Assembly: GCA_016278415.1 (NCBI GenBank)
Contig: JADQBV010000027.1
Span: forward strand, 1-7,382
Length of the DNA stretch: 7,382 nucleotides
From: Halanaerobiales bacterium
GTDB taxonomy: Bacteria; Bacillota_F; Halanaerobiia; Halanaerobiales; DTU029
Direction: 5' to 3'
Shown here one piece after another: positions 1,019-5,932 of the stretch. Made by a program: the position numbers and the translations under genes. The notes under the pieces were generated by a model that was given only the letters and a program-made list of their open reading frames with translations, did not search any database and was not told where the DNA came from. Positions within the stretch are counted from its first letter, which is position 1; every line of letters starts with the position of its first letter.

Positions 1019-2170
1019 CTATTCGGCTTGTAATTTATTTAATAGTAATCTAGCATTATTATTACTTGAATCTAAATGTAGTGTCTTTCTTAACTCTTCA
1101 ATAGCTGCCTGTTTCATATTCATTTTTTGATAAGCTAAAGCAAGATGATAATGTGCATCCGGGAAGTTAGGATTACTTTCTAATGCCTTTAGATATTGTG
1201 CCATAGCCTTATATGTTTCATCTTGATCTAGATACAGGTCACCTAATGATAAATAGGCAGTTACATAGTTCTTATTGTAACTAACTGCTTTTTCATAATA
1301 GTTAATGGCAAGTTCAATATTTTTTTCGACTTTATGATAAATTTCTCCTAAATAGTAGTAACCTTGATATATATTTTCATTAGTATTGACAACCTCAGTA
1401 TAGTACTTTTTAGCCATCTCATAATCTTTATTAAGATAGTATGCCTTAGCCAACTTAGTCTTGAGAGCAAGAAGAGAATTATCAAGTTTTACTCCTTTAT
1501 TTAATATCTCGATGGCATCTTGATATTGCCCTTTTTCCAAATAAATATCACCCATATTTGAGTATATAGAAGAATTATTAGGGGCTTCGTCAATAGCCTT
1601 CTTATATATTGTTAGAGCAGGATCCAATTTGCCGATTTCTTTATACAATCTTGCCAGATTAATATAATCTCCTACTACAGCATCTTTGTTTATAGCTAGT
1701 TCATATTCTTTAGCGGCTTTTTCAAAATTACCCAGTCCCTGGTATGCAGCAGCTAAATCACTATGTAAACCTGATGATGATATACCCAATTGTTTAGCTA
1801 ATTCTAATTCTCTTTTAGCTTCATTGTAAAATGGACTATCATAATAACCATCTTCATTAAGATACAATTGGCCTAATTTCCAATTAATTATTCCAAAATT
1901 ATATCCATTTTCATTTAATATTTTCATGTTTTTCTTTGCGCTTGTTACCTGATTTAACTCTATATATGCAAGTGTTTGAAAATATAATGCATCAACATTA
2001 TATTGCTTATTTTCTTTTAAATACTCTTTGAATTCATTTATCGACTGATTATACTCACCACTATAATAACTAGTAATTCCCTCAACAAGCATGTCATTAT
2101 CAGCAAAAACTATGATTGAGCTAAATAACATTACAGTAACAATAGTCAAAACAACAATCTTTCTCTTCAT
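1019..2170 (-). CDS. Secreted TPR-repeat protein (about ten repeats)
   Basis: The protein is a 383-residue tetratricopeptide-repeat solenoid with an export signal; such scaffolds bind other proteins, but no enzyme motif is visible. Residues 1-23 form a classical signal peptide: basic MKRK, a hydrophobic core, then VFA before a likely signal peptidase I cleavage ahead of DND. There is no lipobox cysteine, so it is probably not a lipoprotein. From about residue 27 to the end I count roughly ten 34-residue TPR units with the usual W/L–G–Y–A spacing (for example AAAYQGLGNFEKAAKEYELA, about 140-159). The third unit carries a short insertion (NEDGYYDSPFYN). The open frame extends to 2200, but ATG at 2170 follows a strong AGAGGGG site by about 9 nt and exposes the signal peptide, so I chose it. 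It sits between cinA and thpR, an unusual place. Family sure, function unknown. Confidence 0.88.
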   Translation of the reverse strand: MKRKIVVLTIVTVMLFSSIIVFADNDMLVEGITSYYSGEYNQSINEFKEYLKENKQYNVDALYFQTLAYIELNQVTSAKKNMKILNENGYNFGIINWKLGQLYLNEDGYYDSPFYNEAKRELELAKQLGISSSGLHSDLAAAYQGLGNFEKAAKEYELAINKDAVVGDYINLARLYKEIGKLDPALTIYKKAIDEAPNNSSIYSNMGDIYLEKGQYQDAIEILNKGVKLDNSLLALKTKLAKAYYLNKDYEMAKKYYTEVVNTNENIYQGYYYLGEIYHKVEKNIELAINYYEKAVSYNKNYVTAYLSLGDLYLDQDETYKAMAQYLKALESNPNFPDAHYHLALAYQKMNMKQAAIEELRKTLHLDSSNNNARLLLNKLQAE

Positions 2171-2179
2171 TATTGTTTT

Positions 2180-2188
2180 CCCCCCTCT
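2180..2188 (-). promoter_or_regulatory. Ribosome binding site fixing the TPR gene start at 2170
   Basis: The minus strand reads AGAGGGGGG here, about 9 nt before ATG 2170. The alternative ATG at 2200 has no comparable site upstream and would place ten charged, non-signal residues (MYVKRGGKTI) in front of the signal peptide. Confidence 0.75.
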
Positions 2189-2261
2189 TTTAACGTACAT
2201 TGTTAATTAATATTAATATACAACTTTAAATTTTCTCCCTAATAAATATATTCTATGTACC

Positions 2262-3509: not shown

Positions 3510-3600
3510 CTTTTCCCTCTCTTTCTAATAATAAAATTATATCTATTCTACTTAACGATATATCTTTGAAGTAATAGATTAAAAAATTTAATTTAAGTTT

Positions 3601-3628
3601 ATTATAACATAGCAAATATAATTGTAAA
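3601..3628 (-). promoter_or_regulatory. Promoter of cinA (extended -10)
   Basis: On the minus strand, -35 TTTACA (3623-3628; five of six to consensus) is followed after 16 nt by a perfect TATAAT (3601-3606). A TG one base upstream of the -10 gives the extended form TGTTATAAT. Transcription should start near 3594, leaving a leader of about 85 nt before ATG 3509. I see no clear operator or riboswitch in this leader. Confidence 0.72.
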
Positions 3629-3703
3629 TATTAAATTAAATTAGTAATTTTAGAAGAACTGCATTCCATTCATAGATAATTTGGCAGTATTTTCAAATAT
3701 AAA

Positions 3704-3743
3704 TACCCTATATAATAGAGAGTTAACTCCTTTATATAGGGTG
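3704..3743 (-). terminator. Hairpin terminator downstream of the FtsH-like protease gene
   Basis: ACCCTATATAA (3705-3715) pairs perfectly with TTATATAGGGT (3732-3742), an 11-bp stem that a T·G wobble can extend by one. Inside lies a second 10-bp palindrome, GAGTTAACTC (3720-3729), so the loop can itself fold. In the minus-strand transcript the stem is followed by AUUUAUAUUUG, moderately U-rich; in the plus direction no U-tract follows. It lies about 150 nt beyond the protease stop codon and before the cinA promoter, the right place to end the upstream transcript. Confidence 0.65.
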
Positions 3744-3888
3744 GCTTATAAGTTTTCAAATAGAATAACATATGTCTATATTTTTATACATAGTAATATA
3801 AATTTATAATGATCAAGTAGTTATTTTCTACAAATATTATAATTGTATGATACAGTTTTCATAGTGTACTATTCTTATTTTCATTTGT

Positions 3889-5382
3889 TTATGCAATTTT
3901 TTTTACCTTTAATAAATCGCGAAGCTGATCACCAGAAAAACGTTCTGACTCTATTAGGTCATCTGCAACACTAAGCATGAGTTCTTTATGCTCTGATACA
4001 ATTTCATATACCTGTTCTTCGATAGTTTTTAATATATTAGTCATTTCCTGGTGTAAAAGTTCTTTTGGCAATGAATCTTCTCCTACAACACCAAGGCCTG
4101 TCATTCCCGATACAACCATAGTTTTAACAAGTTTGATGGCCTGCTCAAAGTCACTTGTTGCACCAGTACTCTTATCATCAAGTAATACCTGCTCCGCTAC
4201 AGAACCTGCAATAGCGATACTGATTTGTTTCTCAAGATAGTCTTTTGTTTGTAGATATACATCATCAGTAGGGTTATGTCTTACATATCCTAGTGCTTTT
4301 CCACGCGAGGTGATAGTTATTGTTGATACAGATCCTGGATTCATGACCTCACTTATCAATGCGTGACCAGTCTCATGAATAGCCACTCTTTTCAATTCCT
4401 CTTCATTTGGTCTTCTATCTAACTTTTCACCCATTATCACTTTATCGATAGCTTCCATAAAATGTTCTTTTGTAATTACCTTACTTTCTTCCCTAAGAGC
4501 AAAAATAGCTGCTTCATTTGCTAAATTCTCTAAATGTGCCCCAGAAAATCTAAATGTCTCTCGAGCAATTTGCTCTAAATCAATATCATCAGCTAAGGGT
4601 TTATTTGCTGTATGAATCTTAAGGATACTTAATCTACCTTCTTTTGCAGGTAAGTCTACCTTTACGATTCTATCAAATCGACCTGGTCTTAGTAAGGCAT
4701 GATCAAGTACTTCCATTCTATTTGTAGCAGCAAGAATTAAAACCTGAACATCATCATCAACAGATAGACCATCCATTTCTACTAAGAGCTGATTTAAGGT
4801 CTGATCATATTCCATGTGACTACTGACTTGTCCACGTTTACCACCTAAAACATCTATTTCATCTATAAAAATGATAGCACTTTTCTTATCACTTTTTTTA
4901 GCAGTTTGACGGGCGTCTTTAAATAAATTTCGTACCCTTTTGGCTCCTAGGCCAGCATACATTTCGATAAATTCACTACCAGATGCCCCAATAAAAACTG
5001 AGTCAGTAAAACGTGCAGCAGCTTTAGCTAACATTGTCTTACCAGTCCCTGGAGGGCCACTCAATAATATACCTTTAATAGCTCTAATACCCATATGTTT
5101 TATACCCTGGATATCCTTAATAAACTCAAGGGCTTCCACAAGTTCTTTTTTTGCAGACTCCTGTCCCCCGATTTCTTTAAATTCTATTGAAGGTACCTTT
5201 TTATCGGAATCAGAACTTTTTCCAGTCGTACCAGCTATGCCTGCAACACCGCCCTGGGATAACATCTGCCACATGAAAAATGCTAAAAAGCCTATAAATA
5301 TTAATGGCAATATATTAAATCCTTGAACAGTCATTATAATTAACAAAGCAACAATCAATCCAAGACCTAGTTCTTTAACCAA
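3889..5382 (-). CDS. FtsH-like membrane AAA+ zinc metalloprotease (M41) lacking the extracytoplasmic domain
   Basis: This 497-residue protein is an ATP-driven, membrane-anchored protease that would unfold and degrade membrane or cytosolic proteins on the inner face. Two hydrophobic segments (about 5-20 and 24-40) are joined by only a few residues (around QGFN); FtsH normally has a domain of some 70-80 residues there, and a total length above 600. After a flexible linker come the AAA+ module with Walker A GPPGTGKT (109-116), pore loop FIEMYAG (138-144; aromatic Tyr where FtsH usually has Phe), Walker B IIFIDEID (170-177) and the second region of homology ending in LRPGRFDR. The M41 domain has HETGH (336-340) and the third zinc ligand Asp411 in GATSDFEQA. 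All catalytic residues are present. TTG 5382 is chosen over GTG 5391 from ribosome-site spacing. The frame overlaps the upstream membrane protein gene by 8 nt. It is probably a paralogue of housekeeping FtsH. Confidence 0.9.
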   Translation of the reverse strand: MVKELGLGLIVALLIIMTVQGFNILPLIFIGFLAFFMWQMLSQGGVAGIAGTTGKSSDSDKKVPSIEFKEIGGQESAKKELVEALEFIKDIQGIKHMGIRAIKGILLSGPPGTGKTMLAKAAARFTDSVFIGASGSEFIEMYAGLGAKRVRNLFKDARQTAKKSDKKSAIIFIDEIDVLGGKRGQVSSHMEYDQTLNQLLVEMDGLSVDDDVQVLILAATNRMEVLDHALLRPGRFDRIVKVDLPAKEGRLSILKIHTANKPLADDIDLEQIARETFRFSGAHLENLANEAAIFALREESKVITKEHFMEAIDKVIMGEKLDRRPNEEELKRVAIHETGHALISEVMNPGSVSTITITSRGKALGYVRHNPTDDVYLQTKDYLEKQISIAIAGSVAEQVLLDDKSTGATSDFEQAIKLVKTMVVSGMTGLGVVGEDSLPKELLHQEMTNILKTIEEQVYEIVSEHKELMLSVADDLIESERFSGDQLRDLLKVKKIA

Positions 5383-5932
5383 TGCTGCCACCTCCTTCTA
5401 TATTTACTAAATTATTATTAAAAACAATTCTCTTATATAATGACTTATCATTATTATCTAACTGCATATATATAGCGTTATTATCTACCCATATTTTATG
5501 ACTATCTATATTATACATCCCAACAATAGATTCTATATTTTTCTCCATCTCAAGGAAATAACCTGTATTTATACCCTGATATATAGCATAGTGTAACTTG
5601 TAATAAACCTCAGCTAGTTCTTTACTATTCTGATTATTTTCCGAAATTAATATATTACCACTTTTATTACCTAGTTTATCTTGCATAATTTGATGAACTT
5701 TTTGATATGATTCATAAAAATCTATACCTGAATGAAAGTCTATTAAAAGGTCCTTTTTATCATTATTATCGATAATACTTACATCATTAACCTCTTCTAA
5801 TGCAAGTATTTCACTTTTTATCGGTTTATCAATATTATAGATTTTAAATAGATATTGACCAGAAAAAAACAGTGCAAGAACTACAACTACTACCAAAATT
5901 ATAATATTTATTCTAAAACCCTTAAACTCCAT
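5375..5932 (-). CDS. Unrecognised single-pass membrane protein, probable partner of the FtsH-like protease
   Basis: I do not recognise this family. The 185-residue protein starts with a short basic head (MEFKGFR), then one strong membrane segment (about residues 8-26), then about 155 mostly polar residues, predicted to be outside the membrane. The outer part has two halves. The first (about 37-97) alternates strands and a helix: LALEEVNDVSII, DLLIDFHS, a helix YESYQKVHQIMQDKL, then GNILISEN. The second (about 103-170) has a helix with YYKLHYAIYQGINTGYF and a strand pair KIWVDNNAIYMQL. There are no cysteines and no catalytic motif. ATG 5932 is preferred over ATG 5947 because GGAGG (5941-5945) lies 8 nt before the former and overlaps the latter. 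Its 3' end overlaps the protease gene by 8 nt. It is not SPFH/HflK-like in size or sequence. It may replace the protease's missing outer domain or present substrates; that is inference. Confidence 0.8.
   Translation of the reverse strand: MEFKGFRINIIILVVVVVLALFFSGQYLFKIYNIDKPIKSEILALEEVNDVSIIDNNDKKDLLIDFHSGIDFYESYQKVHQIMQDKLGNKSGNILISENNQNSKELAEVYYKLHYAIYQGINTGYFLEMEKNIESIVGMYNIDSHKIWVDNNAIYMQLDNNDKSLYKRIVFNNNLVNIEGGGSIG
5391..5397 (-). promoter_or_regulatory. Ribosome binding site placing the protease start at TTG 5382
   Basis: A perfect AAGGAGG on the minus strand lies 8 nt before TTG 5382. Its last base is the first base of GTG 5391, so that GTG cannot be served by it. The site is inside the last codons of the upstream gene (encoding EGGG), and that gene's stop codon (5375-5377) lies just past the TTG, an arrangement that suggests translational coupling. 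Confidence 0.75.

What the first reader, a model, noticed from the sequence alone, without database searches (positions are those of the whole stretch)
3889..5932. Two-gene membrane protease system: FtsH-like enzyme without its outer domain, coupled to a single-pass protein that has one
The protease keeps Walker A and B, the second region of homology, HETGH and the Asp zinc ligand, but its two membrane segments are joined by only a few residues, so it has no extracytoplasmic domain. The gene directly upstream, overlapping by 8 nt, encodes one membrane anchor plus about 155 outer residues of a type I do not recognise. The simplest reading is that a domain normally within FtsH is supplied in trans, or that the partner is a dedicated adaptor or gate as HflKC and prohibitins are for FtsH-type proteases. 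The gene overlap and domain content are seen; the functional link is inference.
Basis: partly seen in the sequence, partly recalled or inferred. Interest (0 to 1): 0.8.

Follow-up and report, generated by a model that had tools for sequence, protein, structure and literature searches.

The report
Split two-gene FtsH-like membrane protease
This is a membrane protein-shredding machine, found in hundreds of Bacillota genomes beside the normal FtsH, that has lost its outer domain and almost always sits next to a gene for a separate outer-facing partner protein that may take that domain's place.

Summary
Window 3889..5382(-) encodes a 497-aa FtsH-like AAA/M41 protease whose two membrane segments form a hairpin with almost no loop. 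It overlaps by 8 nt a 185-aa single-pass protein (5375..5932, -), with the protease's Shine-Dalgarno site inside the partner's last codons. The pairing is real: the partner, or an ORF of its size, lies directly upstream in 80 of 80 named loci and in 65 of 67 protease-centred loci from genome searches (the other two are cut by a contig end). In a 398-genome draw 268 genomes have both by profile; of 17 discordant ones, one truly lacks the protease. The pair stays together while pgsA, rimO and cinA around it change. Genomes checked for it also hold a canonical FtsH. The partner's outer part is modelled as an alpha-beta-beta-alpha-beta domain plus a second domain; the first shows a weak, method-dependent similarity to FtsH's own outer domain and a fold shared with ring-building motifs and other domains. 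The pair occurs almost only in genomes with the sporulation gene spoIVA, but not significantly so after correction for phylogeny. Best reading: a dedicated second membrane protease whose outer ring or gate is supplied in trans. Physical contact is untested.

The parts
3889..5382 (-). short FtsH-like AAA/M41 protease, 497 aa from the TTG start (500 aa if the GTG at 5391 is used)
5257..5370 (-). two transmembrane segments joined as a hairpin (loop about GFN), no extracytoplasmic domain
   Evidence: boundaries by eye
4453..5070 (-). AAA ATPase domain and lid (Walker A, Walker B, SRH)
3916..4407 (-). Peptidase M41 domain, HETGH at about 4363..4377, Asp ligand at about 4150..4152
5375..5932 (-). 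partner: single-pass membrane protein, 185 aa
5849..5911 (-). partner membrane anchor (residues about 8-28, within a predicted helix 8-43)
5627..5851 (-). partner domain 1 (residues 28-102), predicted alpha-beta-beta-alpha-beta
5411..5626 (-). partner domain 2 (residues 103-174), predicted alpha-alpha-beta-beta-beta
5378..5404 (-). partner C-terminal tail (EGGGSIG end, low confidence in the model); its glycine codons hold the protease's ribosome-binding site
5390..5397 (-). Shine-Dalgarno site of the protease gene (AAGGAGGT)

Best explanation
The two genes make one dedicated membrane protease, distinct from the housekeeping FtsH that the same genomes keep. Shown: an active-looking AAA/M41 subunit held by a membrane hairpin with no outer domain; a single-pass partner that accompanies it wherever it was examined, usually in an overlapping or abutting gene. 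Inferred: the partner joins the hexamer through its membrane helix and puts an outer layer (domain 1 as a ring or collar, domain 2 on top) over the protease, doing in trans what FtsH's own outer domain does in cis, that is holding the ring together and deciding which membrane proteins enter. More weakly inferred: its substrates belong to endospore formation, where Bacillus subtilis relies on its FtsH.
Against: No contact or complex was predicted or measured. The FtsH_ext similarity fell to 3% in global mode and 7% under another column rule, did not gain from a larger profile, and a plain profile search gave best E 0.017 for a partner against 0.026 for a reversed one. The model of domain 1 has three strands where FtsH's outer domain has five (PMC13097134, passages). 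CDF-transporter C-domains and ribosomal S3 match domain 1 about as well as ring-building motifs. G232 keeps a partner without the protease. On a 136-row tree the sporulation link was not significant: of 15 supported contrasts 5.8 agree, 1.6 oppose, 7.6 show no difference, p about 0.22. No enrichment of sporulation-sigma promoters upstream of the partner. Eight pair genomes show no SpoIVA and 59 SpoIVA genomes no pair.
Confidence: 0.5

Rival explanations
1. The partner is a dedicated adaptor or sensor: it binds substrates or an outside signal with its outer domains and hands them to, or switches on, the protease, without being a structural stand-in for FtsH's outer domain.
For: The fixed pairing and close gene junctions fit equally well. 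The partner evolves faster (mostly 15-30% identity to the window copy outside its nearest kin) than the protease (50-71%), as substrate-facing parts often do.
Against: The weak FtsH_ext similarity and the exact absence of the outer domain in the protease point to replacement; neither is decisive.
Confidence: 0.3
2. The partner is an inhibitor or a substrate whose removal by the protease is the regulatory event.
For: Membrane-associated inhibitors that are also substrates are known for FtsH, such as lambda CIII (PMC1838920, abstract start in a listing).
Against: Two well-ordered predicted outer domains, conserved across classes, are more than a degradation tag needs.
Confidence: 0.08
3. The two genes are neighbours by operon inertia only.
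For: In 42 of 80 loci the pair sits in one conserved pgsA neighbourhood.
Against: The pair stays intact where neither pgsA nor rimO is recognised upstream (31 of 80), for example beside polyphosphate kinase, a diguanylate cyclase or an acyltransferase.
Confidence: 0.05
4. The pair is a general envelope quality-control protease; the link with sporulation only mirrors ancestry.
For: Tree-corrected contrasts not significant (p about 0.22, p 0.25). No sporulation-type promoter signal, weak sigma-A signal. 59 SpoIVA genomes lack the pair and 8 pair genomes lack SpoIVA.
Against: In the class of G003 the match is 26 of 27 against 0 of 32; of three independent contrasts there 2.7 agree on average and none oppose.
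Confidence: 0.45

Closest known systems
Canonical bacterial FtsH (TIGR01241; AAA + M41)
   Same: AAA domain, second region of homology, HExGH and Asp ligand, two N-terminal membrane segments, hexamer-type enzyme by homology
   Different: No outer domain, about 90 residues fewer before the AAA domain, below NCBIfam's FtsH cut-off (445.8 against 600), separate clade, and present next to a canonical FtsH in the same genomes
FtsH-HflKC and m-AAA-prohibitin supercomplexes
   Same: An AAA/M41 membrane protease with separately encoded membrane partners facing outwards
   Different: HflKC and prohibitins are SPFH proteins (recalled) and FtsH keeps its own outer domain in FtsH-HflKC (PMC13097134, passages); the window partner matches no SPFH family and is fixed to one short protease
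FtsH outer domain (FtsH_ext, PF06480; PDB 4v0b)
   Same: Place next to an FtsH-type membrane segment; collinear 53-column local profile match to partner domain 1, P 1.1e-4
   Different: Separate polypeptide, fewer strands in the model, an extra second domain; the similarity depends on the method
Ring-building motif domains (PrgK, EscJ, FliF)
   Different: No sequence-level match seen (one search shows 25 of 110 families); CDF-transporter C-domains score about the same, so this may be only a common arrangement

Membership tests
AAA/M41 metalloprotease (FtsH-like) | AAA domain and Peptidase_M41 over their curated cut-offs | tested here: met
   127.4 and 98.0 bits against 21.2 and 29.9
AAA/M41 metalloprotease (FtsH-like) | catalytic residues (Walker A/B, arginine finger, HExGH, Asp ligand) kept in relatives | tested here: met
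   key positions invariant in 32 rows
canonical FtsH (TIGR01241) | score over the curated cut-off | tested here: not met
   445.8 bits, cut-off 600; a canonical FtsH from a relative scores 888
canonical FtsH (TIGR01241) | outer domain between the two membrane segments | tested here: not met
   median gap 2 residues against 81 (17 of 81 short ones merge into one segment); no FtsH_ext in the families shown
FtsH_ext (partner domain 1) | sequence family match | tested here: inconclusive
   no single-sequence Pfam match for the window partner; profile-profile 57% local, 3% global, 42% with a larger profile, 7% by another column rule; plain profile search no better than reversed sequences
FtsH_ext (partner domain 1) | forms a six-fold outer ring on an FtsH hexamer | not testable with these tools
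   no complex modelling offered
ring-building motif | alpha-beta-beta-alpha-beta fold | tested here: inconclusive
   fold present in the model, but CDF domains score about equally
SPFH / HflKC / prohibitin (partner) | Band_7 (SPFH) domain | tested here: not met
   the only Pfam match of the window partner up to E 1 is S1FA at 0.12
sporulation-specific gene set | confined to spore formers | tested here: inconclusive
   275 of 283 raw; not significant on the 136-row tree
sporulation-specific gene set | read by a sporulation sigma factor | tested here: inconclusive
   mean z 0.02, 0.14, 0.00 and 0.28 (standard errors 0.11-0.14) for sigma E, F, G and K over 79 loci; matrices made from recalled consensus strings

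The most novel reading that the evidence does not exclude
The outer domain of an FtsH protease was split off into its own membrane protein, kept as an alpha-beta-beta-alpha-beta ring-former and enlarged by a second domain, giving a two-subunit membrane protease that many Bacillota maintain beside FtsH specifically for endospore formation.
Probability: 0.25. Interest if true: 0.82.

Novelty: new variant of a known kind. Interest (0 to 1): 0.6.

Why it matters
What FtsH's outer domain does, and how partners such as HflKC steer the protease, is still being worked out (PMC13097134 proposes gating and threading routes; passages read). A natural FtsH-like enzyme whose outer part is a separate, removable subunit would let that be tested by adding it or leaving it out. 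The pair is also widespread (short protease in 277 of 398 drawn genomes), yet in the records seen it is called mostly 'AAA family ATPase', at times 'vesicle-fusing ATPase', 'ATPase' or plain FtsH. If the sporulation link holds, it adds a conserved membrane protease to a well-studied developmental programme. Whether B. subtilis itself has the short form was not tested; the control search shows only that it has an M41 protein.

Full report
What is in the window. The window reads, on the minus strand, rimO - pgsA - partner - short protease - cinA - a TPR protein - thpR - recA (rimO and recA named by recall). No whole genome is held. Near protein relatives with an organism name are Halanaerobiales MAGs, Natronospora and Halocella. 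The protease is best started at the TTG at 5382 (497 aa): many homologues start there, and a perfect Shine-Dalgarno match lies upstream, inside the codons for the partner's glycine-rich end. Recurring glycines at partner ends may therefore owe as much to the ribosome-binding site as to the protein; in the model the tail has low confidence.

The protease. AAA, lid and M41 domains are over cut-off. Key catalytic and Walker residues, the pore tyrosine and the SRH arginines are invariant in 32 relatives, so it should be an active enzyme. It scores 445.8 bits against NCBIfam's FtsH model, under the cut-off of 600, while a canonical FtsH from a relative scores 888. A profile of the short family separates the two kinds: 733-817 bits for whole short members in one set and 632-697 for the diverged ones, against 409-459 for canonical ones. 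On a quick tree of the shared part the 32 short ones form one clade (SH-aLRT 100; the tool warns that their joining with two atypical M41 proteins may be false). The two membrane segments are a median of 2 residues apart in the 64 of 81 where both are seen, against 81 in canonical FtsH.

The partner goes with it. A scan of named genomes kept 80 loci with the short protease (98 encoded a relative; the best 80 were kept). All 80 have the partner or an ORF of its size directly upstream: 76 by blastp (L010's frame is shifted, L032 is cut), four (L024, L061, L069, L079) by position and by aligning with the rest. In 398 genomes drawn around G005 the partner was found in 276 and the short protease in 277, with 268 in common. 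The 17 discordant genomes were opened. Of nine with the protease only, eight have a diverged partner ORF directly upstream (seven by profile, one by place and likeness to its sisters) and one is cut. Of eight with the partner only, five hold pieces of the protease, two were chance hits in giant proteins, and one, G232, truly shows none. For most of the 268, adjacency itself was not opened. Among 67 protease-centred loci from genome searches (at least eight are the same places as named loci), 64 have the partner by profile directly upstream, one has the ORF, two are cut; the 30 best partner-centred loci all have the protease. Surroundings vary: pgsA recognised just upstream in 42 of 80 named loci, rimO in 6, neither in 31, one cut; cinA next downstream in 42, not recognised there in 34 and too little DNA in 4 (window row left out). 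Polyphosphate kinase, an acyltransferase or a diguanylate cyclase lie upstream in some. So shared neighbourhood alone does not explain the pairing. In 43 of 79 junctions the genes overlap and in 54 they are within 10 nt; a Shine-Dalgarno match of at least 5/6 was seen in 75, but starts were chosen partly by that match.

It is a second protease, not a replacement. All 18 pair-bearing genomes of one test hold a canonical FtsH too. Canonical-level M41 matches were also found in all 79 genomes of a mixed set and in 57 of 59 of the class of G003, among them all with the short form.

Spore formers. SpoIVA was found in 334 of the 398 genomes. Of 283 genomes with the pair or part of it (two false hits dropped), 275 have SpoIVA; of the other 115, 59 do (p 3e-27 without regard to ancestry). 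In the class of G003, 59 genomes, the short protease passed the threshold in 24 and pieces of it were found in two more (G411 cut, so its partner is unseen; G418 frameshifted, with partner). These 26 are 26 of the 27 with SpoIVA (G442 the exception); none of the 32 without SpoIVA has it. On a tree of 57 canonical FtsHs this rests on three independent contrasts, of which 2.7 agree on average and none oppose (p 0.25). On a wider tree of 136 rows, in which all eight counter-examples were put in, 15 supported contrasts gave 5.8 agreeing, 1.6 opposing and 7.6 without difference, p about 0.22. Promoters of sporulation sigma factors were not enriched upstream of the partner. The link is thus strong as a raw pattern and unproven after correction. 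It is plausible: in B. subtilis FtsH degrades SpoIIE and Spo0E, and its gene lies near spoIIE in diverse spore formers (PMC4714977, passages).

How it most likely works. Shown: fixed pairing, overlapping or abutting genes in most loci, missing outer domain, intact active sites, co-existence with FtsH. Inferred: the partner joins the hexamer in the membrane and forms its outer layer, which in FtsH itself is a six-fold ring (PMC13097134, passages), thereby gating or selecting membrane substrates. Rival readings, adaptor or sensor above all, fit the pairing equally well and need a complex to be told apart.

Novelty. Partnered FtsH enzymes are known; a distinct short FtsH-like family tied to a separate outward-facing protein was not described in any title or abstract start returned by six paper searches. 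I file it as a new variant of a known kind.

Noticed in passing
L111:2985-4652(-) and L112:2302-4059(+): A third kind of M41 protein (555 and 585 aa) with closely spaced membrane segments and a motif RGRTYWI.PGETG before the AAA domain, only 240-247 bits to the short-protease profile.
   Followed up: no
L358:3212-3826(-) (genome G232): A partner gene without any short protease, followed by what looks by eye like a Spo0B-type protein and obgE.
   Followed up: partly
window 3510-3888, arms at about 3705-3715 and 3732-3742: Long gap between the protease and cinA with an 11-nt inverted repeat (ACCCTATATAA ... TTATATAGGGT), read by eye; perhaps a terminator.
   Followed up: no
window 1019-2200(-): TPR-repeat protein between cinA and thpR; by blastp seen in the same place only in loci L001-L003.
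   Followed up: no
genomes G161, G240, G151, G229, G333, G262, G048, G214: Several genomes without the pair carry two canonical-level M41 genes, so FtsH duplication takes more than one route in this phylum.
   Followed up: no
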